A DNA stretch of 37,155 nucleotides, taken from the NCBI GenBank assembly GCA_028685815.1, contig JAQUDG010000011.1, positions 1 to 37,155 of the forward strand, given 5' to 3'. Both the position numbers and the translations under genes were made by a program. Origin of the DNA: Desulfuromonas sp. (GTDB lineage Bacteria; Desulfobacterota; Desulfuromonadia; Desulfuromonadales; Desulfuromonadaceae). The stretch's first letter is position 1. Every line of letters starts with the position of its first letter. This document shows positions 6,405 to 37,155 of this stretch, one piece after another. A model generated the notes under the pieces. That model made no database searches, was not told the origin of the DNA, and saw nothing but the letters and a program-made list of their open reading frames with translations.

Positions 6405-7313
6405 ATGAAGGCTGACATTGATGTGGCCCAAAAACGCCCCATAACGAACATGCTCAGCATCGATGTGGAAGATTACTTTCAAGTCTCTGCGTTTGAAAAG
6501 GTATCGCCCCCGGCAACGTGGCAGGATCGGGAATGGCGCTTTGAAGCCAACACCGACAGGATACTTGAATTGTTGGAACAACATCAAACCCACGCCACTT
6601 TTTTTGTGTTGAGCTGGGTTGCGCAGCGCTGTCCCGATCTTATTCGACGTATTGTTGCTGCCGGTCATGAGCTTGCAAGTCACGGACATGGACATCGACG
6701 TGTCAACACGTTATCCCGCGAGGAATTCCGCCACGATATACGCTACGCCAAGAATAAACTCGAACAAATTTCTGGGGAGTGCGTTACTGGTTACCGCGCA
6801 CCGAGTTATTCTATTTCGCCTCATACGCCTTGGGCTTTCGATGAACTACTCGAAGCCGGATACCGCTACGATTCAAGCATCTTTCCGGTTAAACACGATT
6901 TTTATGGTTTGGCTGACTGGCCACGTTTTGCCGGGTTCGCCGTTAGAGACACACACGGAGCTTGGCGCGCCGGAGCATCTGAAGATGTGCAGCCTGCGAT
7001 CAGAGAGTTGCCTATCTCCACGTTGCGTCTGGGCGGGAGAAATCTGCCCATTGCTGGTGGTGGTTATTTCCGCCTTCTGCCTTACGGCGTAACTCGGTGG
7101 GGTTTGCGCCAGCTGAATAATAAGGAAGAGCAGCCCTTTGTTTTCTATCTCCATCCGTGGGAGTTAGATCCAGAGCAACCGCGTATGCGAGGAGCGGGAT
7201 GGAAAAGTAACTTCAGGCATTACCTCAATCTGAGCAAGACCGAGGCGCGTTTTGCGCGGTTAATGCAGGATTTTCACTTTGATACCATTAAAGCGGGACT
7301 GAATGTGACATGA
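6405..7313 (+). CDS. Polysaccharide deacetylase with DUF3473 tail (XrtA type)
   Basis: A 302-residue carbohydrate esterase family 4 protein, expected to remove N- or O-acetyl groups from the polymer. Metal and catalytic motifs are present: LSIDVEDYF (D20, E22, D23), the histidine motif SHGHGH (H93, H97) and RAPSYS (131-136). The end carries YLHPWELDPEQPR, characteristic of the DUF3473 tail in the pepcterm_polyde family (TIGR03006). There is no signal peptide, as usual for this subgroup, so it may act in the cytoplasm on lipid-linked intermediates. ATG 6405 follows AGGAGAGGGA at 6387-6396. Its last four bases overlap the next gene (ATGA), pointing to translational coupling. Confidence 0.93.
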   Translation: MKADIDVAQKRPITNMLSIDVEDYFQVSAFEKVSPPATWQDREWRFEANTDRILELLEQHQTHATFFVLSWVAQRCPDLIRRIVAAGHELASHGHGHRRVNTLSREEFRHDIRYAKNKLEQISGECVTGYRAPSYSISPHTPWAFDELLEAGYRYDSSIFPVKHDFYGLADWPRFAGFAVRDTHGAWRAGASEDVQPAIRELPISTLRLGGRNLPIAGGGYFRLLPYGVTRWGLRQLNNKEEQPFVFYLHPWELDPEQPRMRGAGWKSNFRHYLNLSKTEARFARLMQDFHFDTIKAGLNVT

Positions 7314-8368
7314 AGCAGCTACGATTCCGCCTGGCAACGCAAGCTGACCGCGTAGTCTGGGATGCATATGTGACAGAACATCCTGATGGGTTGCCCTATC
7401 AGTTATGGGCTTGGCGCCAGGCGGTCGAGGAGGCCTACGCCTATCAGTCCCATTATCTCTTGGCGGAGTCGGAAGATAATATTTGCGGAGTCTTGCCACT
7501 CATTGCCTTTTGCGTGCCGTTACGTGGTACGCGCCTAATCTCTTTGCCTTACTGTGATGCGGGAGGTGTTGTAGCCGATACCGCGGAAATAGCGACAGCC
7601 TTGGTTAGATATGCGACCGAAACAACGCAGAGGGAATGCTTAATACGTTGCGCCATGCCGCTGTTACCGCAACAGGCCAATCTTACCTCCAAGGTGAGGA
7701 TGATTCTCCAACTACCTGCAGACAGCTCAACGCTTCTTGCCTCCATGAAGGCCAAAGTGCGCAGCCAGATAAACAAACCGCAGCGTGATGGTCTTACGGC
7801 AAAACTGGGGCAGATGGAGCTGATACATGAATTCTATATGGTTTTTGCAGAAAACATGCGCGATCTCGGATCTCCGGTGCATAGCCGCCACTGGATTGAA
7901 GCTATCGTTAGCGCCTACGGTGAACAGTGCCGAATCGCGGTGGTATATACGCCACAGGGAGAGGTTGCCGCAGCCGGAATTATTTTGCTCCACCCCAATT
8001 TGGTGGTGATCCCTTGGGCTTCGGCGCGGCAGCGCTTCAATAAAATGAACCCCAACATGTTGTTGTATTGGACGTTTCTATCTTTTGCGTGTGACCACGG
8101 CTACCCGCAGTTTGACTTTGGGCGCTCAACACCCGACGAAGGAACCTATCGGTTTAAAAAACAGTGGGGTGCAAGTCCGCAACCGCTTTACTGGTATGAA
8201 TTGCCCACACAACTCGGGCAGGGCGCGGAAGCACAGACTGAATCGCCGTCTTTACGTCAGCGGGCAATAAATCGAGGTACAAGCCTGGTAGCAAAGTTGT
8301 GGCAGAAACTGCCGCTCCCTGTTGCCAACGCCCTTGGGCCCAAAGTTAGAAAGTATATTTCGTTATGA
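7310..8368 (+). CDS. FemAB-like acyl/aminoacyltransferase (XrtA type)
   Basis: A 352-residue protein with two GNAT-like halves. The central VRSQINKPQRDGL and the later FDFGRSTPDEGTYRFKKQWG are hallmark stretches of the exosortase-associated FemAB family (TIGR03019). Related Fem proteins transfer amino acids from aminoacyl-tRNA to peptidoglycan precursors; the substrate of this subgroup is not established, and an aminoacyl or acyl group placed on the EPS unit is plausible. The gene overlaps the deacetylase upstream and the glycosyltransferase downstream by four bases each (ATGA), so all three are translated as a coupled set. Confidence 0.9.
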   Translation: MKQLRFRLATQADRVVWDAYVTEHPDGLPYQLWAWRQAVEEAYAYQSHYLLAESEDNICGVLPLIAFCVPLRGTRLISLPYCDAGGVVADTAEIATALVRYATETTQRECLIRCAMPLLPQQANLTSKVRMILQLPADSSTLLASMKAKVRSQINKPQRDGLTAKLGQMELIHEFYMVFAENMRDLGSPVHSRHWIEAIVSAYGEQCRIAVVYTPQGEVAAAGIILLHPNLVVIPWASARQRFNKMNPNMLLYWTFLSFACDHGYPQFDFGRSTPDEGTYRFKKQWGASPQPLYWYELPTQLGQGAEAQTESPSLRQRAINRGTSLVAKLWQKLPLPVANALGPKVRKYISL

Positions 8369-9621: not shown

Positions 9622-10875
9622 TTGAAAATTCTCCATATTCTCGATCATAGCTTGCCGTTACACAGCGGTTATACCTTTCGGAGCCAGAATTTGTTTCGCG
9701 CTCAACGCAGCCTGGGCTACGAGCCGGTGATTGTCACTTCGCCAAAACATGAACAGAGCTGGAAGGGCGCATGGAGTGACAAGGAAGAGATCAACGGCTT
9801 TACCTATTATCGCAGTGGCGCCACCCGCTCGTTGCCGGGGCCGATCACCAGCGAGACATGGTTGATGTATGTCTTGGCGCGTCGCATCTATCAAGTTGCA
9901 CTGCAAGAAAAGCCCGACATTTTGCATGCGCACTCGCCGGTGCTCAATGCCATTGCGGCGAGGTGGGTGGCACGTAAGCTCAAATTACCGCTGGTGTATG
10001 AAATTCGCGCTTTCTGGGAAGATGCTGCCGTTGATCACGGCACCACGCATGAAGGTTCATTGCGTTATCGCTTGACCAAGAACGTTGAGACCATGGTATG
10101 CCGCCGCGCGGACCATATTGCCATCCTGTGTGATGGCCTGAAGGATGATCTGGTTCAGCGCGGCATTCCCGCGCAGAAAATTACCCCGGTCTTCAACGGG
10201 GTCAATCCGGATGATTTTAAACCTTGCGCCGCCGATGCAGAGTACCGGCAGCAGTGGGCGCTTTCCGGTAAAAAGGTGATCGGTTTCATCGGCTCATTTT
10301 ATCGCTACGAAGGGCTTGATCTGTTGGTACGTGCGTTTGCCCGTATCGCCGCACATCAGCCGGATACGCTGCTGTTGCTGGTTGGTGGCGGCGAAATGGA
10401 GGCCGAGTTGAACGAATTGATTGCGGCGCTGGGGTTGACGGAACGTGTAGTGCTACCGGGGAGAATTCCGCATGAACGGGTACCGGGTGTCTACGCCATG
10501 ATCGATATCCTGGCCTATCCCCGCTACTCCATGCGCCTGACCGAACTGGTCACACCACTCAAACCCTTGGAAGCAATGGCCATGGGTAAAGTATTGGTGG
10601 CTAGTGATGTGGGTGGACATAAAGAGCTGATACGTGCTGGCGAGACCGGGGTGCTGTTCAAGGCCGGCGATGAAGAGGCGCTGGCGTTGAGTTTGCAGAC
10701 TCTACTCGATAATGACGAGCTGCGCGAGAAGTTGCAGCAGCAGGGATTGAACTGGGTGCGCGAACATCACTGCTGGCATCAGACTACAGCTGTATATCAA
10801 GATATCTACGCGCACCTCTGTGATCAAATCTGTGCCCCTGGAAACGCCGATGCTCCTCATCAGGTGCGCGGATGA
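9622..10875 (+). CDS. Glycosyltransferase, exosortase A-associated stp3 type
   Basis: A 417-residue GT4-family glycosyltransferase. The opening KILHILDHSLPLHSGYTFR is the signature of the exosortase A-associated stp3 family (TIGR04063), whose members begin directly at this motif; this supports TTG 9622 as start. Further signatures are HAHSPVLNAIAARWVARK, YEIRAFWEDAAVDHGT, PVFNGVNPDDF and ELVTPLKPLEAMAMGK, the last carrying the donor-site acidic motif. It acts in the cytoplasm on the lipid-linked growing unit. It starts 36 bases after stp1 and overlaps the following glycosyltransferase by four bases (ATGA). The sugar donor cannot be read from sequence. Confidence 0.92.
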   Translation: MKILHILDHSLPLHSGYTFRSQNLFRAQRSLGYEPVIVTSPKHEQSWKGAWSDKEEINGFTYYRSGATRSLPGPITSETWLMYVLARRIYQVALQEKPDILHAHSPVLNAIAARWVARKLKLPLVYEIRAFWEDAAVDHGTTHEGSLRYRLTKNVETMVCRRADHIAILCDGLKDDLVQRGIPAQKITPVFNGVNPDDFKPCAADAEYRQQWALSGKKVIGFIGSFYRYEGLDLLVRAFARIAAHQPDTLLLLVGGGEMEAELNELIAALGLTERVVLPGRIPHERVPGVYAMIDILAYPRYSMRLTELVTPLKPLEAMAMGKVLVASDVGGHKELIRAGETGVLFKAGDEEALALSLQTLLDNDELREKLQQQGLNWVREHHCWHQTTAVYQDIYAHLCDQICAPGNADAPHQVRG

Positions 10876-12026
10876 AGGTGCTTTCGTTCTCATATTGTTT
10901 CCCCAATATGAACAACCCTTCTTGGGGGATTTTTGTGTATCAACGTCTTGCCGCCATGGCACAGCATGCTGAGCTGAAAGCGTGTGCTCCAGTGCCATGG
11001 TTCCCTTTGCTCGCGCAAGCGCCAGATCAAGAAAAAGAACAGCGTTGGAATGCTCTGGCTGTTTTCCGGCCGCGCTTTTTCTATATCCCCAAATTTCTTA
11101 AAAATTACGACGCCAGATTTTATGCTGCTGGATTGCATCCCTGGCTCGATTCGCTGCGGCAAAGTTGGCAGCCGGATATCCTAGATGCCCACTTTATCTG
11201 GCCGGATGGGGTTGGGGTTGCCCTACTGGCGCAAAAATTCAAAATACCATACGTGATTACGTTGCGCGGCAAGCTGTATGAATGTCTGAAAAGTGTCAAT
11301 CAAGCGCGTCAATGCAGTCGAGCATTGCAGGGGGCGCAGGCGATTATCAGCGTCTCGTCACGCATGGCTGCAGAGGCGGTAGGTCTGGGGGCGGATGCAC
11401 AGCGTGTAGTGGTTATCCCTAATGGGGTGGATCTGGAGCACTTTCAGGTTCGAGATCAGCAGGAGTGTCGCCAGAAGCTCAACTTGCCCCTCACTGGACG
11501 CCTACTGGTGACCGTAGCCCATCTCGGGCATCGAAAAGGGCATCACGAAGTGATCGAAGCATTAGCTTCTCTGCCCGATGATGTCCGCCTGGTTATTGTA
11601 GGTGGCGGGGCGCAAGGGGGGAGTGAGGAACAGCTGCTGGATGTGGCTCGAACCCATGGCGTTGCCGAACGTCTGATCTTGCCCGGACGTCAGCCGTATG
11701 AACTAATCCCTTATTTTTACGCCGCCGCAGATGCCAGTGTGCTCGCTTCTTACCGGGAAGGGTGCCCCAATGCTGTGCTTGAAAGTCTTGCCTGCGGTAC
11801 GCCAGTGGTTGCGACCGATGTCGGCGCCGTGCCCGATATTCTGCCCCAACCACAGTGCGGACGTATGGTGGCGCCGCAGGAGGTTGCTCCTTTACAACAT
11901 GCCCTGCGTGAGGTTCTGGAAACCAAGTGGAATGCATCAATGGTTCGATCCGCCAGCGGCGTACGCAGTTGGGAACAGGTGGCAGAGGAAGTTATGCGGG
12001 TTTTTCAGAAAGTCCTTAGTCCTTAG
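10872..12026 (+). CDS. Glycosyltransferase family 4
   Basis: A 384-residue GT-B-fold enzyme. The N-terminal acceptor half begins VLSFSYCFPN; the C-terminal donor half has VVVIPNGVDLEHF, TVAHLGHRKGHHEVIEAL and EGCPNAVLESLACGTPVVAT, the canonical GT4 block with the EX7E-like acidic pair. It probably transfers a sugar from a nucleotide donor to the EPS lipid intermediate. Start ATG 10872 overlaps the previous stop (ATGA), giving coupled translation. It does not carry the opening signatures of the stp1-3 subgroups, so only the broad family is called. Confidence 0.9.
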   Translation: MKVLSFSYCFPNMNNPSWGIFVYQRLAAMAQHAELKACAPVPWFPLLAQAPDQEKEQRWNALAVFRPRFFYIPKFLKNYDARFYAAGLHPWLDSLRQSWQPDILDAHFIWPDGVGVALLAQKFKIPYVITLRGKLYECLKSVNQARQCSRALQGAQAIISVSSRMAAEAVGLGADAQRVVVIPNGVDLEHFQVRDQQECRQKLNLPLTGRLLVTVAHLGHRKGHHEVIEALASLPDDVRLVIVGGGAQGGSEEQLLDVARTHGVAERLILPGRQPYELIPYFYAAADASVLASYREGCPNAVLESLACGTPVVATDVGAVPDILPQPQCGRMVAPQEVAPLQHALREVLETKWNASMVRSASGVRSWEQVAEEVMRVFQKVLSP

Positions 12027-12039
12027 AACTGGAGTTTTC

Positions 12040-13284
12040 ATGCAACAGGTTAAACCATTTAATCCAAAATTGAAGCAACAGGATCGCAACCGCCGAGTTC
12101 TCGCCATCGTTGGGGATACTCAGGTCGGGTTGTGGGTGGTGCGCAGCTTAGCGCGCAATGGCCTTGAAGTGCATGCCATCACCAATACCTCGCAAGGTCA
12201 ATCAGCCCATAGTCGCTACAGCGCCAGTGCCTGGACTCTAGAGAACAAACCGCATCAACCAGATTTCGCCGCGGAAATTCTTGCATTGGCTTGCCAGCTC
12301 GATGTTGGGTCCATCATGCCGGTTTCAGAAGGGATGCATAATCGTCTTATCTCCTTGCGTGAGCAACTCGATGCTGCGCAGATCCATCTTTTTTCCCCGT
12401 CGCGTGAGAACTTTGATAAGGCCACCGACAAGGATTATGTCCATCAGCAGTGTCTTGAACTGAATATCCCCGTAGCTAAGGGAATGCGCCTTGATGAATT
12501 TATGTTGGCCGGGCCGGAAACGGCGCTGCAGTATCCGCTGGTGTTACGCACTCGCAGGCAAAATGTCGATGCCGGGAAAGTGCCCGTCAAAGCAGCCTAT
12601 GCGCGCAATCTAGAAGAATTGCTTAAGTTGCAGCGCCAGTATGAAGCGTTTGCCGACAATGTTTTAGTACAGGAATACCATCCGGGGGCGGAGGAGCATG
12701 TGCAAATCTTGATGCACGAAGGCGAGATGTTTCAGAGTGGTGACTACATTGGTGAGCATCACATGCCTCTGGCCGGAGGGGTCACCGTACAGCGCATCAG
12801 CTGTCATCATCAGCCAGTGATTGATGACACGGTTAAGTTGCTTAAAGCCCTCAACTGGCAGGGGATTGCCGGGGTGCAGTTCCATTACGAACCCTCAACA
12901 GGGAAGTATATCTTTCTGGAGATCAATCCGCGCTTCAGCGGGGGATTGCCGACGGTGGTTATGGCCGGGTTTGAGGCACCTTTTAATCTATGGCAAAGCT
13001 ATTTTGAACCGGAAAAGATGGGTAAAACTCCCTATAAACTCGGATTGCGTTCCAGGATTCTCGGCGGTGAAGCCAACTGGCTTCTAGGCCAACTCCGTCG
13101 AGACGAGTTGCCCCCTGGGCAAACCCACCTCGGGCGCATTGAGGCGATTCTGACGGTGCTGTGGCACTGCGGCCCCTGGACCAAGGACGATTCATGGCTG
13201 TTCACCGATCCAAAACCATTCTTTGCTGATTTCAAGCAGATGCTCAAAAAACTCGGCGCGCGCGGGCACGAGATTGTGAATTAA
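12040..13284 (+). CDS. ATP-grasp ligase-like protein
   Basis: A 414-residue cytoplasmic protein of the ATP-grasp superfamily (carboxylate-amine/thiol ligases). The N-terminal Rossmann-like part reads VLAIVGDTQVGLWVVRSLA, followed by an ATP-grasp core with PLVLRTRRQN, VLVQEYHPGAEEHVQ and the metal-binding FLEINPRFSGG. ATG 12040 is chosen because GGAG at 12031-12034 precedes it; the frame is open further upstream only as overlap with the glycosyltransferase. Such enzymes activate a carboxylate as an acyl-phosphate and join it to an amine. Together with the PaaK-like, FemAB and Asn-synthetase-like genes it suggests amide chemistry on the sugar or a linked amino acid. The true substrate is unknown; carbamoyl-phosphate-synthase-like relatives are the nearest general description. 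Confidence 0.85.
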   Translation: MQQVKPFNPKLKQQDRNRRVLAIVGDTQVGLWVVRSLARNGLEVHAITNTSQGQSAHSRYSASAWTLENKPHQPDFAAEILALACQLDVGSIMPVSEGMHNRLISLREQLDAAQIHLFSPSRENFDKATDKDYVHQQCLELNIPVAKGMRLDEFMLAGPETALQYPLVLRTRRQNVDAGKVPVKAAYARNLEELLKLQRQYEAFADNVLVQEYHPGAEEHVQILMHEGEMFQSGDYIGEHHMPLAGGVTVQRISCHHQPVIDDTVKLLKALNWQGIAGVQFHYEPSTGKYIFLEINPRFSGGLPTVVMAGFEAPFNLWQSYFEPEKMGKTPYKLGLRSRILGGEANWLLGQLRRDELPPGQTHLGRIEAILTVLWHCGPWTKDDSWLFTDPKPFFADFKQMLKKLGARGHEIVN

Positions 13285-13326
13285 ACACGGACATAAGCAA
13301 ATCATTGGCAAAAAAGCGAGGTTTTT

Positions 13327-14706
13327 ATGTTCCCAGTTGTTGCACGTCAACTCTTTAAATGGCAAGAACGCCTACTCGGCCGGGATAGCTTTGCGATTCT
13401 GGCGCAATTGCTGGAGTCTGAACGCTGGGAGCAGGAGCGCTTGCAGGAATTGCAAGTCGCGCGCCTGCAGCGAAGTGTTCAACTAGCCTACCAACACACT
13501 GCGTTCTGGCGCACCCTCATGGAGCAAAATCAGCTGCAACCGCAAATGGTGCAGTCCTTGGCGGATCTGCAGCGTTTTCCATTTTTGGACAAAGAGATCA
13601 TTCGTGCTCACCGCGAGGAGATGGTCTGGAAAGATGAGGGCAAGCGTGTGCAGTTGGTGCGTACCAGTGGTTCCACCAACGAGGCGCTGGAGTTTTACAC
13701 CTCTTCCACGCGTGAAGCGCAGATCAATGCGGCGCGCATGCGCGGACATGAGTGGGTGGGGATGCGGCGCGGAGAAAAAGAGCTATATTACTGGGGTTCT
13801 CCCATTGAGTTGAGCAAGCAAGACCGGATCAAGCGTGTGCGGGATTGGTTGATTAACGATGCGTTGACCAACGGCTTTGAAGTAACCCCTGCGCGTTTGA
13901 AGAGCTATTTCGCCCAATGGCTCAAGTGGCAGCCCAAATGTATTTTCGGCTATCCAAGCACCTTTGTCCTTACGGTCAGTATGGCGCAAACACTGGGGAT
14001 CGATCTAACGGAACTGAAAAGCCGAGGCCTGAAACTTATTTCCACCACCAGCGAATTGCTCTCCAGCGTGGATCGACAGTTGATCGAGCGGGGCTTCGGG
14101 GTGCCGGTTTATGATTCCTACGGATTACGCGAGGCGGGCCTCATCGGACATGAGTGCACCCACGGCACCATGCACTGCATGGATGAGCAGGTGCTTCTCG
14201 AAACCATTGACCCCGAAACCTTGCAACCCACAGAGGGTGAAGGGGAGCTGGTGGCCACCAATATTGTTGGCCCGGCATTTCCCCTGTTTCGATATCGCAC
14301 CGGCGACATCGTCACCCTGTCGCATCAGCCCTGTGCTTGTGGCCGGACCCTCTCCTCCATCACCATCAGCGGTGGGCGTGCGGTTGAGTTTATCGTCACC
14401 AAAGCGGGGAAGTGGGTGGTTGGGTATTCGTTTATCTATATTGCGCGCGCGGTCAAAGGGATCGTTAAATTTCAGGTGATTCAGGAGAAGCTTGGTGCCA
14501 TCTTGATTCGCCTGGTGGTTAATGAGCAGTTTCCTCCCGATGGTATTGAACAGGTCAAAATTAAAGCGGCTCAGCGCATGGGTGGGGATGATTGGATTCA
14601 TGTCGAACTGGTTGAGGATATCAAGGCGGCACGCTCGGGTAAATATCGACCGGTGATCAGCAAGGTGGCCGAAGAGATGTATCGAAAGAGAGAGTTTTCT
14701 GTTTAG
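13327..14706 (+). CDS. PaaK/CapK-like adenylate-forming enzyme
   Basis: A 459-residue member of the phenylacetate-CoA ligase-like family (CapK type), found in many capsule and EPS loci. The nucleotide-binding loop is VRTSGSTNEALEF (about 111-123); later come VYDSYGLREAGLIGHEC, FPLFRYRTGD and a PCACGRT cysteine pair, all in the family order. These enzymes adenylate a carboxylic acid, usually before thioester formation; the role of the CapK branch is not established. The start ATG 13327 follows GCGAGG. It is 42 bases after the ATP-grasp gene and in the same direction, so the two probably act on one modification. Family assignment is strong; the substrate is unknown. Confidence 0.88.
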   Translation: MFPVVARQLFKWQERLLGRDSFAILAQLLESERWEQERLQELQVARLQRSVQLAYQHTAFWRTLMEQNQLQPQMVQSLADLQRFPFLDKEIIRAHREEMVWKDEGKRVQLVRTSGSTNEALEFYTSSTREAQINAARMRGHEWVGMRRGEKELYYWGSPIELSKQDRIKRVRDWLINDALTNGFEVTPARLKSYFAQWLKWQPKCIFGYPSTFVLTVSMAQTLGIDLTELKSRGLKLISTTSELLSSVDRQLIERGFGVPVYDSYGLREAGLIGHECTHGTMHCMDEQVLLETIDPETLQPTEGEGELVATNIVGPAFPLFRYRTGDIVTLSHQPCACGRTLSSITISGGRAVEFIVTKAGKWVVGYSFIYIARAVKGIVKFQVIQEKLGAILIRLVVNEQFPPDGIEQVKIKAAQRMGGDDWIHVELVEDIKAARSGKYRPVISKVAEEMYRKREFSV

Positions 14707-14747
14707 CCGCCGATTTACTTTTTTTAGTGACCAACAAGGGGCAAAAA

Positions 14748-15533
14748 ATGAAATTCATGCTTGCCGTTGATTGTGAAGGGGTCGCGTGTGTTGTCGGTGA
14801 GCCCGGCACCTCTTTGAGCCACTCCGCCAATATGGAGTTTGCGCGGCAGGAGGCGACCCGGGAGACCAATGCAGCGCTGCGCGCCCTGTTTGAGTGTGGG
14901 GCGCAGCAGGTTGCGGTCTGGGATAATCATGGCGATGGAGCGAACCTGCTCTTTGAGCAACTGGATTCGCGCTGTGAAATTGTGCTCGGAACTGGCTTTG
15001 CGCGGCGCTTTCCCCAGTTGGATGCCAGTTATGCTGGGGTATTGCTGCTTGGTTATCATGCCAAGGCGGGGAGCCCGTGTGGCGTTCTGGCGCACACCTA
15101 TTGTTCCGCAGCGTACCGTAGCATTCGGGTCAATGGGTTGGAGGTGGGGGAGATTGCCCTGGATGCAGCAGTGGCGGGCGAGCTGGGTGTGCCGGTTATC
15201 TGTGTTGTCAGCGACCAGCAGGGTTGTGCGGAAGCGCTACATCATATGCCGTGGCTGGAGGCGGTGGTCACAAAAGAAGGTTTTGGGCGCCATTGCGCCC
15301 TTAGCAAGCATCCTGCCGTGGTTGAAAATGAGATTGAACACGCTGTACAACGCGCTATCCGGACATTGATGGAAAAAAAACCGTTTACGTTTCCGACCCC
15401 GCTGCAGATGGAACTGCAGTTCACCACGTGGAGCCGATGTCTGAAAGCGAAAATTCGGCGTTCCGGCTGGCGCATTAACAGCACGAAAACGTTGCAAAAA
15501 ACCTTGTCGAGCATGCTGGAATGGCAGTGTTGA
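14748..15533 (+). CDS. M55 family D-aminopeptidase-like (DppA-like)
   Basis: A 261-residue zinc aminopeptidase-like protein. The opening KFMLAVDCEGVACVVG matches M55. Residues D8, E10, H61 (in WDNHGDG), H104 (in GYHAKAG) and E135 (in NGLEVGEIALDA) sit almost where the zinc ligands of Bacillus subtilis DppA are known (D8, E10, H60, H104, E133). HTY at 116-118 marks the catalytic loop; the position matching the DppA nucleophile Cys115 appears to be Ala115, with Cys111 and Cys119 nearby, so activity should not be assumed. AAGGGG precedes ATG 14748; an upstream in-frame GTG at 14727 lacks a site. There is no signal peptide. A cytoplasmic peptidase for D-amino-acid peptides inside an EPS operon is unusual. 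Confidence 0.87.
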   Translation: MKFMLAVDCEGVACVVGEPGTSLSHSANMEFARQEATRETNAALRALFECGAQQVAVWDNHGDGANLLFEQLDSRCEIVLGTGFARRFPQLDASYAGVLLLGYHAKAGSPCGVLAHTYCSAAYRSIRVNGLEVGEIALDAAVAGELGVPVICVVSDQQGCAEALHHMPWLEAVVTKEGFGRHCALSKHPAVVENEIEHAVQRAIRTLMEKKPFTFPTPLQMELQFTTWSRCLKAKIRRSGWRINSTKTLQKTLSSMLEWQC

Positions 15534-15594
15534 AACGATATTTTTCAAGGCGATATGCTTGGATGGAGGATCAGGAAAATCATGGGAATTACGT

Positions 15595-15601
15595 GGAGGG
15601 A
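15595..15601 (+). promoter_or_regulatory. Ribosome binding site that decides ATG start at 15609
   Basis: GGAGGGA lies seven bases before ATG 15609 and is the best site in the region. Two earlier in-frame ATGs (15555, 15582) would put extra residues ahead of a signal peptide. Confidence 0.65.
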
Positions 15602-15608
15602 ACTTGTA

Positions 15609-17666
15609 ATGTCAAGAATTGAAGTTTGCTCCCTAACGCTATGTTTTTTAGTTGTTTTGGCAGGAGTTCCGGGTTTTGCATCAGGTGCTTTGGCAGCCAT
15701 TTATCCATCCCCATCTCAGGTACTGGTGCTATATAACGCCGATTGGCACGGGGACGAACCGCTGACTGCACCGGGACAAGATTCACTTGAGATCGCAACC
15801 CACTACGTGGATATGCACACCGACCAGACCAGTGGTGAAAAACCTTATATATTGGGACTGCACTGCAAGCACGGAATTAAAATTATCGACAAAGTCCACC
15901 ATCTTGATTCCGACCATCTAGCGGAAGACAGTGCCGATAATCAGGCGGGTGTTGTGTTTAAGCGTAACTCACTGTTTGGGCCAACGCTGCGCGAGGATCA
16001 GTTGCGCGACAGCAGTCTGGTGGAGTTTGTTCTCCCGGGAGGTCACTCATCCTGGCAGATGGACAGCCTGCAGATGACCCTAGTGCCCGAAAAAGGAAAA
16101 GATCTGGTCCTGGTCAAAGATGGCTCGATTGTGGCGCAAGGGAAAATTGCTCTCAACAGCACCGATGCTTGGACTGTTCGCCTAGATGGAAAAAGTTTTG
16201 CCGCCGGCACGTTGACTCTCAAAGCTTCCTGTACTGACAAGAAAGGCAAGGTACATTCTTGGAAGGCTGACTATGTTGACATTGATGCGGTGGAACTTTC
16301 ACATACAGGGCGCGACGGTAAACGTGATGATAAAAACTTTCTTGAAGATGTGGCTCAGCCCGTCAAAGAATTTCTTGAAGATCCGCAACATGCGCGTCCT
16401 GATGGCACCCTGCTCAAGGATCACATCTTGTTTATGGTGGTGTGTTACGGGCTGCCGCGTACTGCCGTCGCCCCGTATGGCATCGCGCGTGGAATAACAA
16501 ATCAGATCAACAACTTTGGCTCTATTCTCGATTTCGGGCAACGCCTGCAATTACTCTATTACGATCTAGACAAGGTTTCTGGGTGCAAAATTCAGAGCTA
16601 CCGTTTTGCAGGAAAGGAACCTTTCAGTGCTTATTTTCTGCGCTCTCCACAAGCGTGGCCCTTGTTAGGTACCGCCAACCTTTTCGCCCATCCTCAGCTT
16701 TACACCGCCAACCCTACGTTCGATAGTGGTCCTCAACCTTTAGCTTATACCGTAGCAAACCGCAGTCAGCATCCGGAGCGTTTTCTCTACTTTGTCAGCC
16801 GCATCGATGCTCCCGATCCATTGCAGGCCAAAACCCTGATTGGTCGTGCCGTGTATGCCTCAACGTATGCTTCCCCCAACATGGGGATACTGCCTGAACA
16901 GGGTTATCCTCAAACTAAAAAACGCACAGGTTATCTGTCCCGTTCTAAGACTGGGATGGATTTGTGGGAGCAGGGCTACCGCCATTTATATTACGGCGGC
17001 AAGAGCAAAAATCTGCTGGAATGGGGGCGACTTGCTCCGGAAGAAGGATTTTTAAACGAAGATACTTCCTATCTCCCCGGGGGCGTTGCCGCAACGGTGA
17101 TTTCGCACAATGGCTGGAACAAGGGAGAGATGCGCACGGACCTGGCACGTGGCGTGAGCGCAACGGCAGGTGCGGCCAAGGTCTATCGCGGAGCTCCGCA
17201 TATCCACAATAAAAGCTGGTGGGATGATGCGGTTTTTTATCCGGCATTATCACGCGGCAAAACCCTGGGGGAAGCCTGGTTGATGAATCAAATGAACTTG
17301 GGGTGGATTACAACATTTGTGGGAGATCCACTCATGAAATTGCCCGCAACACCGATTCTTCCCCACGCGCCTAAATATATTGACGCGGATAACGATGTCA
17401 GCTTTCAGGTGGTAAAGGGTGCGCACGCAAAAGAAGTCTGGCTGCAAGTGGATTTAGGTACCACCGCAGCGCACCCGCAAGTGGCTCAACTTCAAGCAGT
17501 GTCCCCAGAAGGGAAGAAGATGATCAGTCCAACCTTTGATGCGCGGCCGACCCTTTATCTGGGAGATAAGGCTGTTTGCGGGGAAAACTGGTTACTGACG
17601 CTGATGGATCCATTTGGGAGAAAATACACGCAAAGTATCGTGGTTGATTGTGTAGGGACACCATAG
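15609..17666 (+). CDS. Exported TIGR03790-like protein (possible cysteine-peptidase fold)
   Basis: A 685-residue exported protein. The signal peptide is residues 1-30 (basic start, hydrophobic core, ending LAA). The N-terminal part (VLVLYNADW, then SLEIATHYVD and LGLHC), the middle HILFMVVCYGLP (272-283) with VAPYGIARGITNQ, and the end GEAWLMNQMNLGW with VGDPLMKLP (571-579) resemble the uncharacterised TIGR03790 family, which as I recall occurs mainly in exosortase-carrying genomes. Residues about 115-235 look like an inserted beta-rich domain. The C-terminal ISHNGW and GDPL segments recall C25/caspase-like proteins, but I cannot identify a catalytic Cys/His pair with confidence. A further beta-rich C-terminal domain (about 590-685) follows. 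It lies 75 bases after M55 in the same direction. Function unknown; a periplasmic or outer-surface role is likely. Confidence 0.7.
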   Translation: MSRIEVCSLTLCFLVVLAGVPGFASGALAAIYPSPSQVLVLYNADWHGDEPLTAPGQDSLEIATHYVDMHTDQTSGEKPYILGLHCKHGIKIIDKVHHLDSDHLAEDSADNQAGVVFKRNSLFGPTLREDQLRDSSLVEFVLPGGHSSWQMDSLQMTLVPEKGKDLVLVKDGSIVAQGKIALNSTDAWTVRLDGKSFAAGTLTLKASCTDKKGKVHSWKADYVDIDAVELSHTGRDGKRDDKNFLEDVAQPVKEFLEDPQHARPDGTLLKDHILFMVVCYGLPRTAVAPYGIARGITNQINNFGSILDFGQRLQLLYYDLDKVSGCKIQSYRFAGKEPFSAYFLRSPQAWPLLGTANLFAHPQLYTANPTFDSGPQPLAYTVANRSQHPERFLYFVSRIDAPDPLQAKTLIGRAVYASTYASPNMGILPEQGYPQTKKRTGYLSRSKTGMDLWEQGYRHLYYGGKSKNLLEWGRLAPEEGFLNEDTSYLPGGVAATVISHNGWNKGEMRTDLARGVSATAGAAKVYRGAPHIHNKSWWDDAVFYPALSRGKTLGEAWLMNQMNLGWITTFVGDPLMKLPATPILPHAPKYIDADNDVSFQVVKGAHAKEVWLQVDLGTTAAHPQVAQLQAVSPEGKKMISPTFDARPTLYLGDKAVCGENWLLTLMDPFGRKYTQSIVVDCVGTP

Positions 17667-18942: not shown

Positions 18943-18969
18943 TAGCTCGATAAAGGGGAAGTGAATTTT

Positions 18970-20070
18970 ATGAAATTTGAACTTGCGTTGGATTGTCGCA
19001 ACTATATGGGAGACCGTCCCTGCCGTTTCAAGCAACGCTGCACCTGCAGCAATTATTCGCCCATGGGCCATCGCATCCTAATCATTAAACTGGGTGCCTT
19101 GGGCGACGTGGTGCGCACTGCCTGCTTGCTGCCCACATTAAAGCGCTACTATCCAAGTTCCCATATTACTTGGATCAGTCTGCCCAACGGGGTGCGCATC
19201 CTCAAAAATCATCCCTTTATCGACCAGTTGTTTGCCTTTGATGCTGAAGGGGTCACGGCGGTGCAGAATCAGACTTTTGATCTGGTGATCTCCCTCGATA
19301 AGGAACCCGGTCCCACTGGCCTATGCAACGCTCTGCGCTCCCCCGATAAGCGCGGCATCAAAATGTCCGAGTGGGGGACGGCGATGCCGACGGATACTCG
19401 AGTCGAGACGTATTTTGAGTTGGGCTTGGATGACGACCTCAAGTTTCGCCACAATACCAAGACCTATCCCGAACTGATCCATGAAGCTTTAGGATTCGAT
19501 TATGTGCGCGAACCTTATCGCCTTTACCCTGACGAAGCTGCTATCAACCGCGCCAAGGAACTTTTCGCCCCTTGGAAAGCAGGCGATCGCCCCATCATCG
19601 GGTTGAACACTGGCGCTGGGCGGGTTTTTGCCCATAAGGCTCCGGGGAGCGACCGCTGGGTTGAAGTGGCTCGATTACTGCTCGATGCGGGATATGGCGT
19701 GGCTTTGCTCGGCGGGCCGGACGAGCAGGAGCTGAACGAATGGATCAATGCCCAATGTGACGGAAGACTGCATGCCACAGGAACTCGCAATGCTGAGCTG
19801 GAATTCACCGCGATTGTTGGTCAGTGCGCCGCGGTGGCGACGGGCGATACCCTCGGGCTACACGTCGCTGTTTCACAAAACGTGCCGACCGTGGCCCTGT
19901 TTGGGCCGACCTGCGCGCAGGAGATCGACCTCTTCGACTGTGGAGTGACGCTGGTTACCGAACTCCCCTGCGCCCCTTGTTACCGGCGTAATTGCGACAT
20001 TGAGCCGCATTGCATGGATTTGATCAAGGCTGAAGCGATTGTCGCAGCGTTGAAAAATTTGGTGCAATAA
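18970..20070 (+). CDS. Glycosyltransferase family 9 (heptosyltransferase-like), Cys-rich ends
   Basis: A 366-residue GT9 protein. The core opens MGHRILIIKLGALGDVVRT (about 32-50), the classical ADP-heptose:LPS transferase start. Donor-side signatures include GLNTGAG, LLGGPDEQEL and ATGDTLGLHVA, then VPTVALFGPT. Ahead of the core is a 31-residue extension with four cysteines (C9, C18, C24, C26), and the end has CAPCYRRNCDIEPHC. Such cysteine pairs are seen in heptosyltransferases of delta-proteobacterial type. ATG 18970 lies about 11 bases after AAAGGGG; GTG 18961 is too close to that site. It may add heptose or another sugar to the EPS or to a lipid A-core acceptor. Confidence 0.88.
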   Translation: MKFELALDCRNYMGDRPCRFKQRCTCSNYSPMGHRILIIKLGALGDVVRTACLLPTLKRYYPSSHITWISLPNGVRILKNHPFIDQLFAFDAEGVTAVQNQTFDLVISLDKEPGPTGLCNALRSPDKRGIKMSEWGTAMPTDTRVETYFELGLDDDLKFRHNTKTYPELIHEALGFDYVREPYRLYPDEAAINRAKELFAPWKAGDRPIIGLNTGAGRVFAHKAPGSDRWVEVARLLLDAGYGVALLGGPDEQELNEWINAQCDGRLHATGTRNAELEFTAIVGQCAAVATGDTLGLHVAVSQNVPTVALFGPTCAQEIDLFDCGVTLVTELPCAPCYRRNCDIEPHCMDLIKAEAIVAALKNLVQ

Positions 20071-20107
20071 CCTTGAAGACACTGATTCTATTAGAATTGT
20101 TGCGCCC

Positions 20108-21661: not shown

Positions 21662-21678
21662 CTATTGTGTGACGATTG

Positions 21679-21684
21679 TAGGAG
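21679..21684 (+). promoter_or_regulatory. Ribosome binding site favouring TTG start at 21691
   Basis: TAGGAG is six bases before TTG 21691 and fifteen before ATG 21700, so the TTG is preferred. The choice adds only three residues. Confidence 0.45.
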
Positions 21685-21690
21685 TGTTGA

Positions 21691-23163: not shown

Positions 23164-23201
23164 TTTTATCCGGCGTCGTTTGCAAGAAGAAGGGAAAGTG
23201 T

Positions 23202-24323: not shown

Positions 24324-24353
24324 AGACTCCCATATTTTGAAAGGAACCTGCCG

Positions 24354-25514: not shown

Positions 25515-25521
25515 GTGACCA

Positions 25522-28044: not shown

Positions 28045-28127
28045 TGCAATCCTTGAACTTTCTGTTTTAATGTTTCTGTATTGCTTGGGGACGGATTTGT
28101 TTTTTGGGTGTAGCGAGGAGAGGGTTT

Positions 28128-29135
28128 ATGCTTCCTGGTATTTTTATTACCTTTGATGTCGAATGTTCCATGGGTGGAGCGTGGGGGAGTCCCAGCGTAA
28201 AACCCGTTTCTCCCCGCTTGGGGATGATGGGAGAGTACGGTGGGCGGCAGCTCGGTGTGCCGCTGATCTGCGATATTTTGGCGCGCAACGACCTCAAGGC
28301 GACCTTTTTCCTCGAACCTTTCAATGCCGATCTTGGCTGGCCGGGCGAGACCGAGCCGGTGGCACAGTATCTGATGGAGCGCGGTCAGGATGTACAATTA
28401 CATATACATCCAAACCATGTTCATTACGGCTTGATCCAGGCTGGCAAAGAGATTCGCCGCACTGACCAGATGGCCGACTTGGATCGAGAGCAGCAGCGGA
28501 AAATGATCGTGAGTGGGGCCGATTTACTTGAAAAGTGGTGTGGCACCAGGCCTATCGCTTTTCGCGCTGGCAACATGGGGGCCTCGGAAGAAACCTTGGC
28601 GGCGCTGTTCGAAGCGGGATTGTGGATTGACAGTAGCTATGCCTTCCCCTATGTCGGCGGACAATGCCGCTTCCTCGATCCGGAACGCTATAATGGCTCG
28701 AAGTGGTACGGCGAGGTGCTGGAGGTGGCCCTCTCTGCCTACGAGCAGCCGAAACTGCCGGGTATGTATCCGGCCAAGCCGGTAGATCTCATGGGTTCCT
28801 CTTTTGAGGAGTGCCGGGACGCAGTACGCATGATCTGTGAAGCCGGCGGCGACTCGGTGTTGATCCTGCATAGCTTCAGTCTCTTCAAGGTGCGGGACAT
28901 GCAGTACAGTGGAGGTAAACTCAACCGAGTGGTGACACGGCGTTTCGAACGGTTCTGTGAGTGGTTTGACGCTAACCGTCACCAGTACCCGCCTCGTACC
29001 TTCTCCGAACTGGGACGGCTGGTGAAGGAAGAAGGATATCAACCGAAAGCTGTGCCCCCATGCTTAGTTAATAAACCACTACGCGCCCTGACGCGTAAGA
29101 TTGTACAGGGGCTGAATAATTTTTACTGGTTCTGA
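28128..29135 (+). CDS. Polysaccharide deacetylase family protein (second)
   Basis: A 335-residue CE4-like protein. ITFDVECS gives the acidic metal motif (D10, E12), LHIHPNHV the histidine pair (H92, H94 or H97) and FRAGNMGAS the arginine motif (R146). The late ILHSFSL resembles the family's last His motif. ATG 28128 follows GAGGAGAGG at 28115-28123; an earlier GTG in frame has no such site. There is no signal peptide, so it is probably cytoplasmic, acting on lipid-linked intermediates or on a nucleotide-sugar-derived unit. It differs from the gene at 6405 in lacking the DUF3473 tail. Its 157-base upstream gap suggests its own promoter. Confidence 0.85.
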   Translation: MLPGIFITFDVECSMGGAWGSPSVKPVSPRLGMMGEYGGRQLGVPLICDILARNDLKATFFLEPFNADLGWPGETEPVAQYLMERGQDVQLHIHPNHVHYGLIQAGKEIRRTDQMADLDREQQRKMIVSGADLLEKWCGTRPIAFRAGNMGASEETLAALFEAGLWIDSSYAFPYVGGQCRFLDPERYNGSKWYGEVLEVALSAYEQPKLPGMYPAKPVDLMGSSFEECRDAVRMICEAGGDSVLILHSFSLFKVRDMQYSGGKLNRVVTRRFERFCEWFDANRHQYPPRTFSELGRLVKEEGYQPKAVPPCLVNKPLRALTRKIVQGLNNFYWF

Positions 29136-29998: not shown

Positions 29999-31264
29999 AT
30001 GCCTATAAACTGCCGTAAAATTGTTTTATCGGTATTTTTAGCACTGCTCACTTTTCTGGAGAGCCTGTGTTACTCACAGGTATATCAGGTGCGTGAAGCT
30101 TGCGAACTTAAGGCAGGGTTAAGTCAACTCAAACCTGGCGATGAACTGCATATTCTCCCCGGAACCTATAGCGGGTTTTTTTTAAGAAACATCCACGGAA
30201 CTGCCGCCGCGCCAATAATTATTCAGGCAGAAGATCCAAATAACCCTCCGATTTTTAAAAGGGGGTCCGAAGGGATGAAGCTCAGCAGTTGTTCCTATCT
30301 TAAATTCAAGAACCTAATTTTCCAGAACTTTCCCACCAACGGCATCAATATTGACGATGATGAAAAAAAAGCTGCATCCCACCATCTTATTCTGGAACAT
30401 ATTCAGGTATTGGATACCGGCGGCAAAGGGAATCAGGATGCGGTGAAGATGAGTGGAGTCACAAATTTTGTGCTACGCCAGTGCCGTATTAAAGGCTGGG
30501 GCGGTTCGGCGGTCGATCTGGTGGGGTGTAGTAACGGCATCATCGAAGGTTGCGCGATCAGTGGCAAACAGGGCTTTCGGGGTGGTAACGGGATTCAGCT
30601 CAAGGGTGGGTCGCACGCCATTCTGGTACAGAATAATCTGTTCAGAGAGGCGGGGCAGCGCATGGTTCAAGTTGGTGGTTTGACTGGCAAGACATCCTTT
30701 CGTCCCACAGTTGGAGACTTCGAGGCAAAAGATATAACCATTGCCGGAAATACCTTCATTGGTGCAGAAGCCCAGATCGCTTGGGTGACGGCCCAGGATA
30801 GCCATGTGCATCACAACCTGTTTTTTCTGCCGGAGAAGTGGGTGGGGCGCATTTCACAGGAAACGCAAGATCGGCAGTTTAAGCCCTGCCAGCGTGGTTT
30901 GTTTGAACGTAATGTGATAGTCACCGACCAACGGGTCAAGGTGTTTTTCAATGTCGGACCGGGGACAGCGCCAGAGAGTTTTGCCTTTCGCGAAAACCTC
31001 TGGTTTCGCCCTGAAGCAGGTAATCGCCCGAATCTCCCTACGTTTGAAAAAGATGGGGTCTACGAGGTTGACCCAATGATTCTCGGCACCGATGCTGGAG
31101 GGTTGCAGATAAATTCTGCGGCACCGCAATTGCAATATATCGGCCCGATAGGCTATCAATCTTGGCCACGTGGAGAAGATTTTGCGGATATTCGGGTGCC
31201 GGTAGTGGAAATACCCGAAGTGACATATTCGGGCGTGGACTGGATTAAGGGTCTTATACAGTAG
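29999..31264 (+). CDS. Exported right-handed parallel beta-helix protein
   Basis: A 421-residue protein with a signal peptide (residues 1-26). The first segment GDELHILPGTYSGFFLRN with GTAAAPIIIQAED is the usual start of pectate-lyase/chondroitinase-like beta-helix proteins. Repeating coils run from about 90 to 330 (LKFKNLIFQNFPTNGINIDD, VLRQCRIKGWGGSAVDL, IIEGCAISGKQG, ILVQNNLFREAGQRM). This fold is common in polysaccharide lyases, C5 epimerases and phage tail spikes; I cannot identify catalytic residues. In an EPS locus a polymer-trimming or epimerising enzyme is likely. AGGTGGAG is well placed before ATG 29999. It ends the plus-strand set, convergent with the minus-strand regulator 30 bases away. 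Confidence 0.8.
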   Translation: MPINCRKIVLSVFLALLTFLESLCYSQVYQVREACELKAGLSQLKPGDELHILPGTYSGFFLRNIHGTAAAPIIIQAEDPNNPPIFKRGSEGMKLSSCSYLKFKNLIFQNFPTNGINIDDDEKKAASHHLILEHIQVLDTGGKGNQDAVKMSGVTNFVLRQCRIKGWGGSAVDLVGCSNGIIEGCAISGKQGFRGGNGIQLKGGSHAILVQNNLFREAGQRMVQVGGLTGKTSFRPTVGDFEAKDITIAGNTFIGAEAQIAWVTAQDSHVHHNLFFLPEKWVGRISQETQDRQFKPCQRGLFERNVIVTDQRVKVFFNVGPGTAPESFAFRENLWFRPEAGNRPNLPTFEKDGVYEVDPMILGTDAGGLQINSAAPQLQYIGPIGYQSWPRGEDFADIRVPVVEIPEVTYSGVDWIKGLIQ

Positions 31265-33540: not shown

Positions 33541-33607
33541 GGAGCAAATCTCCTTTTACTGCACAAGTTTGTAGGTGTTCAATCCTGTGGTTGTTTGGTA
33601 AAAGCGC

Positions 33608-35774: not shown

Positions 35775-36854
35775 TTAGCTTTTATTTAGCAAGAGACGGA
35801 CGATTTTTTTAAAGTGGGCGGGGCGGATGCGCCGCATGTTCTCCCAAGTTGCTTTTTTGACAATGGGAAGCATCGCCCTTACTCGGTAAGACTCTCTGTT
35901 GTATTGGGGCACGGTTATCCCCTTACGCAGCAATTTATTGGCGCTGTTGCGGTATTTCTCCCCTCTGCGACTGCGGTCGAGAATAATGTCGTGCCCAGTG
36001 TCTAATACTGGAAATGTTTCAACGTGCCTGATCTGCTTTTTGTCGAGCTCGAGGACGATTATTGAGCTGGTGCGCTCAAATCGGTCCCAGCTTAGGGTAT
36101 CGCCATCCTCCCAGTAGACACAGTTGGCAAGGAAATTTCCTAGGGAGTAGGCGATAAAACCATGCTGGTAATGTTCTGTTCCCTGCAATACGTGTGGATG
36201 GTGCCCCAGGATAGCGGTCGCACCTGAATCTATAAAGCAGCGCGCTTGTATAATCTGCTTCGGAGCGGGAAAACGAAAACGTTCATCCCCCCAGTGGGGT
36301 ACAAAAAACACATGATCATGCGTTTGTTTTAAGCCATTAATTGTAGCGCGGATAACGTTATCGTCAAACGGTGGGACTCCGCTTTGCTCAGCAGAGGCAA
36401 AGCGCTTAACCCCAGTGGAGGGGGAGACTGCCGCAAAAAAAGCGATGCGGATATCGTTGATGGAGAGGGTGATTGGGGCGCACGCTTTGGCGGAATCAAG
36501 TCCTGCCCCGAAAAACTTTATCCCTAACTGGTTGAGTTTTGTTTCGATCTTCTCAAAACCTGGGTCAAAAGCATCAAACGCGTGGTTGTTTGCTAGGGTC
36601 ACCAGGTTTATATGTGTGTGCTGTAGCGATTCTAATTGTTGCTCTGTGGTAAAGACTCTGGGCTCAGTGGAGATATATGGCTCCGCAGGCAGGGTGCATT
36701 CGAGGTTAGCCAACACCACATCGCAGGTAGCGAAGAGGTTGCATATTTCTGGAGACAAGGCTTCCAGTCCACGACCCGGAGTTCGGGAAGAGCGGGGCGT
36801 GGTTAGCAGGAGGTCTCCAACGGCTGCGATGCGCAAGGTGTCCTTTTTTCCCAT
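35775..36854 (-). CDS. CapA family protein (PGA_cap metallophosphatase fold)
   Basis: A 359-residue protein of the CapA/PgsA family. Motifs in order: AAVGDLLLTTPRS, VVLANLECTLP, LVTLANNHAFDAFDPGF, FVPHWGDERF, AILGHHPHVLQG and IAYSLGNFLAN; these carry the conserved Asp, Asn and His residues of calcineurin-like metal sites. The CapA family is linked to capsule and poly-gamma-glutamate production, but its catalytic role is not settled. No clear signal peptide is seen in this reading. ATG 36854 is preferred, four bases after the VanZ-like stop; an in-frame TTG at 36869 would overlap that gene and has no ribosome site. Neighbours on the same strand are the kinase and regulator. Confidence 0.9.
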   Translation of the reverse strand: MGKKDTLRIAAVGDLLLTTPRSSRTPGRGLEALSPEICNLFATCDVVLANLECTLPAEPYISTEPRVFTTEQQLESLQHTHINLVTLANNHAFDAFDPGFEKIETKLNQLGIKFFGAGLDSAKACAPITLSINDIRIAFFAAVSPSTGVKRFASAEQSGVPPFDDNVIRATINGLKQTHDHVFFVPHWGDERFRFPAPKQIIQARCFIDSGATAILGHHPHVLQGTEHYQHGFIAYSLGNFLANCVYWEDGDTLSWDRFERTSSIIVLELDKKQIRHVETFPVLDTGHDIILDRSRRGEKYRNSANKLLRKGITVPQYNRESYRVRAMLPIVKKATWENMRRIRPAHFKKIVRLLLNKS

Positions 36855-36858
36855 AGCT

Positions 36859-37155
36859 TTAAGTGCCAATTTTATTAGGGGCGCAATCTAGGTTGCGGGT
36901 ATTAAATAGCGGAATCCACATGGATAAAGCGCCACCAAGCATATAAGAATAAATATCTGTCATGGACGCAGTTCTTGATGCAAGGAAGAGCTGTCCACCC
37001 TCATGGAGCACACCGAGTAATCCGGTAAGAATAATTGCGAGCGTTACGTTTGCGATGGTTTTATCGCGGATGTCAAAACGTAGCCGCACAAAATATACAA
37101 GGGTAATTGAGAGTAAGATGGTTTGTACGAACAGGCGCACATGGTTAAGGCTTGC
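36859..37155 (-). CDS. VanZ-like membrane protein (truncated by window edge)
   Basis: The last 98 residues of a membrane protein; the frame is open to the right edge, so the start is outside. Three hydrophobic helices are visible and the conserved stretch EGGQLFLASRTASMTDIYSY followed by MLGGALSMWI matches VanZ-like proteins (Glu-Gln motif, Arg, Asp-Ile). A GTG at 37140 is not taken as start because the family has further helices before this part. VanZ-like genes occur in EPS/exosortase neighbourhoods, but their role is unclear. The stop is four bases before the CapA start, so both are probably one operon with the kinase. Confidence 0.65.
   Translation of the reverse strand, partial: ASLNHVRLFVQTILLSITLVYFVRLRFDIRDKTIANVTLAIILTGLLGVLHEGGQLFLASRTASMTDIYSYMLGGALSMWIPLFNTRNLDCAPNKIGT

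What the first reader, a model, noticed from the sequence alone, without database searches (positions are those of the whole stretch)
12040..17666. Candidate undescribed amide/peptide-modification module in an EPS locus
Four consecutive genes encode an ATP-grasp ligase, a PaaK/CapK-like adenylating enzyme, an M55 D-aminopeptidase-like protein and an exported TIGR03790-like protein. With the FemAB gene at 7310 and the Asn-synthetase-like gene at 21691, the locus holds at least five families that make or break amide or peptide bonds. A shared role in attaching an amino acid or acid by an amide bond to a sugar (for example a uronic acid or amino sugar), with the secreted protein and peptidase editing the product, would explain them. 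This is inference; each family is known, the combination I do not recognise.
Basis: partly seen in the sequence, partly recalled or inferred. Interest (0 to 1): 0.7.

Follow-up and report, generated by a model that had tools for sequence, protein, structure and literature searches.

The report
Conserved sugar-modification module in EPS loci
Inside a polysaccharide (slime) gene cluster lies a set of about five enzyme genes that travel together across distantly related anaerobic bacteria and that probably swap the acetyl group on an amino sugar for another acid or amino acid; the set appears undescribed, but its chemistry has a published precedent and its product is unknown.

Summary
The four genes are real, consecutive and tightly spaced, inside an XrtA/PEP-CTERM-type exopolysaccharide locus. 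In 11 other genomes (five families, three classes) the recurring unit is GT4 (10872) – ATP-grasp (12040) – polysaccharide deacetylase – PaaK-like (13327) – M55 (14748), partly cut by contig ends in some drafts. In this window the deacetylase alone lies elsewhere, at 28104. Among 84 good genomes of the order, close homologues of ATP-grasp, deacetylase, PaaK and M55 occur in exactly the same seven. ATP-grasp, deacetylase and PaaK are more conserved than most EPS export genes, while repeat-unit genes around them are swapped. The TIGR03790-like protein is a looser partner: it occurs in XrtA loci without the module. FemAB (TIGR03019) and its neighbouring deacetylase (TIGR03006) belong to the general XrtA core; Veith 2020 proposes an aminoacyl-sugar role for such a pair. 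The 'Asn-synthetase-like' gene matches no family model. Best reading: a second deacetylate-then-reacylate unit acting in the cytoplasm on a conserved amino sugar. Active-site residues are intact in ATP-grasp and M55; substrates are inferred. New variant of a known kind; function unproven.

The parts
10872..12026 (+). GT4 glycosyltransferase (TuaC-like), first gene of the conserved module
   Evidence: PF00534; next to ATP-grasp in G005, G007, G009, G012, G013, G061, G084, G125 and G070, and in G525 with FemAB between
12040..13284 (+). CPS-like ATP-grasp ligase
   Evidence: PF15632 and CPSase_L_D2 above cut-off; 63-85% identical in 11 other genomes; Q276/E290/N292/R294 invariant and aligned to the VQF...EVNPR motif of carbamoyl phosphate synthetase 1a9x
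13327..14706 (+). PaaK/CapK-like adenylate-forming enzyme
   Evidence: PDB profile match 4r1l phenylacetate-CoA ligase E 3.5e-30; motifs TSGSTN, YRTGD, SGKYR invariant; 68-84% identical in relatives
14748..15533 (+). M55 D-aminopeptidase-like metallohydrolase, predicted cytoplasmic
   Evidence: PF04951 219 bits; PDB 1hi9 DppA E 1.8e-30; D15, H68, H111, H123, E142 invariant and position 17 E or D
15555..17666 (+). Exported long TIGR03790-like protein; loose partner of the module
   Evidence: N-terminal hydrophobic segment; TIGR03790 sub-cut-off; hhalign to canonical TIGR03790 E 7e-13; present in XrtA loci lacking the module
28104..29135 (+). Second polysaccharide deacetylase (DAC2), module member displaced in this genome
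   Evidence: PF01522 28.7 bits; lies between ATP-grasp and PaaK in the other genomes with that stretch assembled; same seven-genome distribution
6405..7313 (+). XrtA-system polysaccharide deacetylase (TIGR03006), overlaps FemAB; XrtA core, not part of the module
   Evidence: TIGR03006 401.7 bits, cut-off 276
7310..8368 (+). FemAB XrtA/PEP-CTERM-associated (TIGR03019); general XrtA core
   Evidence: 276.8 bits, cut-off 260
29999..31264 (+). Exported beta-helix protein, usual neighbour of the module
   Evidence: PF13229/PF14592; next to or near M55 in G061, G068, G084
35775..36869 (-). PGA_cap (CapA-like) protein, usual divergent neighbour of the module
   Evidence: PF09587 170 bits; 47-56% identical near the module in 8 genomes

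Best explanation
A cytoplasmic 'deacetylate and re-acylate' unit of an XrtA-type EPS locus. The GT4 adds an N-acetylated amino sugar to the lipid-linked glycan. The second deacetylase (28104) removes the acetyl group. PaaK activates a carboxylic acid as adenylate or thioester. The ATP-grasp ligase joins an acid or amino acid to the freed amine through an acyl phosphate. The M55 metallohydrolase trims or proofreads a (D-)aminoacyl amide. Shown: linkage, co-occurrence, intact motifs, no export signal on these proteins. Inferred: order of steps, substrates, and that the sugar is a conserved unit rather than the variable repeat.
For: Identical presence of ATP-grasp, DAC2, PaaK and M55 in 7 of 84 good genomes of the order (1/C(84,7) = 2e-10, or 3e-6 at genus level). 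Same order in families f1, f15 and f8 and, with small changes, in two genomes of other classes, G440 and Desulfobacter latus G525. Catalytic residues conserved in ATP-grasp and M55. A deacetylase would supply a free amine. Module genes are conserved while Wzx, AsnB-like, GT and Wzy genes are exchanged. Published precedent for deacetylase plus amino-acid transfer on a sugar of an exported glycan: VimE/VimA, PMC7468200. A deacetylase is needed for floc formation in Thauera (PMC4784049), and CapK was hit in a biofilm-suppressor screen in a PEP-CTERM EPS cluster of Rubrivivax (PMC3684757).
Against: No biochemical data. ATP-grasp matches only broad CPS-like models, so its substrate, and even amide formation, is unproven. 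PF01522 proteins can act on other substrates. Two activating enzymes (PaaK and ATP-grasp) are more than one amide needs. M55 could serve cell-wall recycling.
Confidence: 0.4

Rival explanations
1. The genes serve several unrelated steps of EPS production (sugar acylation, precursor supply, amino acid salvage) and are linked only because all belong to one horizontally moving EPS island.
For: EPS islands are mosaic; the repeat-unit cassette here is swapped; DAC2 sits elsewhere in this window; GT_TuaC is only 42% identical in G061.
Against: Exact co-occurrence, and much higher conservation and fixed order of these genes than of most EPS neighbours.
Confidence: 0.27
2. The module makes a conserved amino-acid-modified linking sugar, used as the nucleophile that exosortase attaches to PEP-CTERM proteins, in parallel with or instead of the FemAB/TIGR03006 pair.
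For: XrtA was found in all six tested good module-bearing genomes of the order, and seven of the nine same-family genomes without an exosortase hit lack the module, the other two being drafts under 90% complete; Veith 2020 speculates that XrtA systems use an amino-acid-modified sugar; the module is conserved although repeat units vary.
Against: XrtA genomes without the module exist (G051, G059), so it cannot be generally required; the FemAB pair is already the better candidate.
Confidence: 0.1
3. The module makes a small amide or peptide conjugate that is not attached to the polysaccharide; M55 degrades it.
For: ATP-grasp and adenylating enzymes also occur in dipeptide and secondary-metabolite synthesis; the M55 relative DppA hydrolyses D-amino-acid peptides (established knowledge; relationship).
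Against: In every genome where the surroundings were assembled the unit lies among EPS genes with a GT4 and a deacetylase.
Confidence: 0.1
4. One reading: the four consecutive genes, with FemAB and Asn-synthetase, form one amide pathway, with the secreted T3790 and M55 editing the product.
For: T3790 is near M55 in f1 genomes; PaaK-like and canonical TIGR03790 genes lie within about 5 kb in G018, G027, G043, G051 and G084.
Against: T3790 occurs without the module; M55 lacks an export signal; 21691 has no Asn-synthetase match.
Confidence: 0.08

Closest known systems
Wbp/Vim linking-sugar pathway (VimE deacetylase, VimA FemAB-like aminoacyl transferase, WbpS amidotransferase), Veith 2020, PMC7468200
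   Same: Deacetylase followed by attachment of an amino acid to a sugar amine; same wider setting of sortase-linked glycans; the window's TIGR03006-TIGR03019 pair matches it directly.
   Different: The module adds ATP-grasp, PaaK-like and M55 enzymes and a second deacetylase; no Asn-synthetase match here; Wbp genes not tested.
XrtA/PEP-CTERM EPS loci (Haft 2006, PMC1569441; TIGR03006/03007/03016/03018/03019/03027/03087/04063)
   Same: The window carries this core above curated cut-offs; XrtA is in the genome; a CapK-like gene appears in the Haft profile table.
   Different: The GT4-ATP-grasp-DAC2-PaaK-M55 unit is not mentioned in the papers found and is absent from other XrtA loci such as G051.
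Rubrivivax gelatinosus and Thauera MZ1T floc/biofilm EPS clusters (PMC3684757, PMC4784049)
   Same: PEP-CTERM-type EPS clusters with CapK, deacetylase and asparagine synthase genes, several with mutant phenotypes.
   Different: No ATP-grasp or M55 gene was noted in the passages read; distribution there not tested.
B. subtilis DppA (M55, PDB 1hi9)
   Same: Fold family and metal and catalytic residues.
   Different: Here the gene is in a glycan operon; substrate unknown; DppA equivalog cut-off not met.
TIGR03790 family
   Same: Homologous over about 300 residues.
   Different: Below cut-off, about 700 aa with extra parts, and lacks the conserved HIASxEC motif.

Membership tests
XrtA/PEP-CTERM EPS locus | Core TIGR families of the EPS locus above cut-off | tested here: met
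   TIGR03027, 03007, 03018, 03016, 03019, 03087, 04063 and 03006 above cut-off
XrtA/PEP-CTERM EPS locus | Exosortase in the genome | tested here: met
   PF09721 on G000:C143, 242.8 bits; not in the window itself
XrtA/PEP-CTERM EPS locus | PEP-CTERM target proteins | not tested
Wbp/Vim-type aminoacyl sugar pathway | CE4 deacetylase next to a VimA/TIGR03019 transferase | tested here: met
   6405-7313 (TIGR03006) overlaps 7310-8368 (TIGR03019)
Wbp/Vim-type aminoacyl sugar pathway | WbpS/AsnB-type amidotransferase | tested here: inconclusive
   21691 gene has no family hit and no hhalign match to an AsnB-like protein of G007; AlphaFold model too poor
Wbp/Vim-type aminoacyl sugar pathway | Amino acid on a sugar of the product | not testable with these tools
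   Needs chemistry
ATP-grasp (carbamoyl phosphate synthetase-like) | Domain match and metal/nucleotide ligands | tested here: met
   Q276/E290/N292/R294
Phenylacetate-CoA ligase PaaK | Curated PaaK equivalog cut-off | tested here: not met
   TIGR02155 81.6 of 646 bits; superfamily motifs present
M55 D-aminopeptidase | Zn ligands and catalytic His as in DppA | tested here: met
   residue roles of DppA from established knowledge; position 17 is E or D
DppA equivalog | NF058634 cut-off | tested here: not met
   124 of 430 bits
TIGR03790 | Curated cut-off 67 bits | tested here: not met
   45.3 bits; homology by hhalign
Glutamine-dependent asparagine synthetase (21691) | Asn_synthase / GATase match | tested here: not met

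The most novel reading that the evidence does not exclude
An undescribed five-enzyme pathway (GT4, ATP-grasp, deacetylase, PaaK-like, M55) makes a conserved acid- or amino-acid-bearing sugar that caps or links different exopolysaccharides, possibly serving as the attachment point for exosortase-processed proteins.
Probability: 0.12. Interest if true: 0.75.

Novelty: new variant of a known kind. Interest (0 to 1): 0.5.

Why it matters
It turns a vague quartet into a defined gene set with exact co-occurrence and a cultured carrier (Desulfobacter latus), so a sugar modification in XrtA-type EPS becomes directly testable. If the product is an amino-acid-bearing sugar, it would bear on the open question of what exosortase attaches PEP-CTERM proteins to.

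Tried and rejected
(1) AlphaFold models of T3790 (pLDDT 38) and of the 21691 protein (pLDDT 44) were too poor, so no fold search was run. (2) The guess that TIGR03790 is a clan-CD (C25-like) peptidase: PDB profile searches with long and canonical forms and a Pfam scan of 20 canonical members gave nothing; dropped as unsupported. (3) Asn synthetase at 21691: no support. (4) T3790 as a strict module member: rejected. (5) Literature searches for the gene combination found nothing; most subscription journals are not held. (6) Plasmid searches gave only distant ATP-grasp, M55, PaaK and deacetylase relatives under 60% identity. (7) Phyla outside the window's own were not sampled with whole-genome searches, so wider distribution is open.

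Full report
What is there. The window is a whole contig (G000:C58) of a 2.6 Mb draft genome. Its nearest named homologues are Desulfuromonadales-type MAGs. It carries an XrtA/PEP-CTERM exopolysaccharide locus: TIGR03027, 03007, 03018, 03016, 03006, 03019, 03087 and 04063 all score above their cut-offs. The exosortase gene lies on another contig. The four genes of the finding are consecutive and closely spaced. ATP-grasp and M55 are secure, PaaK-like is secure at superfamily level, and T3790 is a long, divergent relative of TIGR03790.

The conserved unit is different from the quartet. I fetched the neighbourhoods of the close homologues and mapped the window's proteins on them. The recurring order is GT4 - ATP-grasp - [EEP phosphodiesterase in G061, G068, G125] - polysaccharide deacetylase - PaaK - M55, often followed by a TPR protein, a beta-helix protein and a divergent PGA_cap gene. 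It is complete in G005, G007, G009, G061 and G084. It is cut by contig ends in G012, G013, G068, G125 and G070. Desulfobacter latus (G525) has it with FemAB inserted and M55 inverted. G440 has ATP-grasp, deacetylase and PaaK together with M55 nearby; its ATP-grasp lies close to the contig end. In this window the deacetylase lies instead at 28104. Its closest relatives are in G061/G068 (80%) rather than in the same family (73-74%), and it sits beside a glycosyltransferase cassette that is also closest to G061. It probably came in with that cassette (inference).

Strength of linkage. In the 84 genomes of the order that are at least 90% complete and at most 5% contaminated, close homologues (57% identity or more) of ATP-grasp, deacetylase, PaaK and M55 are found in the same seven genomes and in no other. 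By chance this is about 2e-10 per pair, or 3e-6 when counted by genus; shared descent makes these figures optimistic. Of the nine same-family genomes without an exosortase hit, seven lack all four genes; the two exceptions, G012 and G013, are drafts under 90% complete. G051 and G059 have exosortase but no ATP-grasp module. Phylum-wide the ATP-grasp subfamily is rare: 2 of 395 sampled genomes in each of two overlapping samples.

What varies and what does not. ATP-grasp, deacetylase and PaaK keep 63-85% identity across families and classes, more than most XrtA export genes in the same comparison (40-53% in G061 for PolyExp, ChnLen, TyrK and OM3016). The repeat-unit genes (GT9, GTa, GTb, Wzy, GTc) are 67-87% identical to G061, a different family, and only 25-44% identical, or absent, in the same family. 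So the module acts on something common to different polysaccharides (inference).

T3790. It sits beside or near M55 or PaaK in f1 genomes. It occurs in an XrtA locus without the module (G051), and is about 17 kb from the ATP-grasp gene in G525; in G061 it lies on a different contig from the module. In G084 a canonical TIGR03790 gene lies about 4 kb from PaaK. In G018, G027, G043 and G051 a 36-38% PaaK relative lies within 5 kb of a canonical TIGR03790 gene. There is therefore a wider PaaK-TIGR03790 association, but no strict membership. The long form lacks the HIASxEC motif of canonical members. Its function stays unknown.

FemAB and 'Asn synthetase'. FemAB overlaps TIGR03006 by 4 bp. Veith et al. 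2020 (PMC7468200) showed that the sugar linking T9SS cargo carries serine or glycine, assigned deacetylation to VimE and amino acid transfer to VimA (which matches TIGR03019), and speculated that XrtA systems make an amino-acid-modified sugar. The amide idea therefore has a precedent, but in the XrtA core, not in the quartet. The gene at 21691 has no detectable Asn-synthetase match.

Mechanism. ATP-grasp retains the CPS-type VQF...EINPR motif, M55 the DppA metal and catalytic residues, PaaK the adenylation motifs, and the deacetylase TFDxE and HxH motifs. None of these four has an N-terminal export signal by a simple hydropathy scan. Together with a GT4 this suggests cytoplasmic deacetylation and re-acylation of an amino sugar before export. 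Steps and substrates are inferred; I put this at 0.4.

Verdict. A real, apparently undescribed, conserved module. Its chemistry is most likely a variant of known sugar N-acylation. The finding was right about linkage for three of its four genes, missed the deacetylase and GT4, and overstated FemAB, Asn synthetase and T3790 as members.

Noticed in passing
18961-27970: Repeat-unit genes GT9, GTa, GTb, Wzy, GTc are 67-87% identical to G061 of another family but replaced in same-family genomes: a serotype-like cassette swap.
   Followed up: partly
21691-23163: Protein with an SSGYDS motif and 43-54% homologues in several EPS loci, yet no Pfam or NCBIfam match: an unassigned family.
   Followed up: partly
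L048:10002-11033, L049, L052, L068:17639-18589: Membrane-anchored EEP phosphodiesterase (weakly VanJ-like) inside the module, overlapping its neighbours by about 10 bp in two genomes, and near it in D. latus.
   Followed up: partly
35775-36869: PGA_cap protein lies divergently near the module in 8 genomes at 47-56% identity; weak NF038314 match.
   Followed up: no
L050:10443-11690, L056:4127-5305, L080:11231-12394: Canonical TIGR03790 proteins carry a conserved HIASxEC motif and in several genomes lie next to xrtA or a PaaK-like gene.
   Followed up: partly
L068:7226-7564: Truncated ATP-grasp copy upstream of the full one in D. latus.
   Followed up: no
L064: A Vibrio alfacsensis plasmid carries XrtA/PEP-CTERM EPS genes (prsT, prsK, prsR, a PEP-CTERM protein) with a different, roughly 590-aa ATP-grasp protein.
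   Followed up: no
31294-35728: GGDEF-EAL response regulator and HDOD histidine kinase genes end the locus on the - strand, with no close match beside the module in relatives.
   Followed up: no
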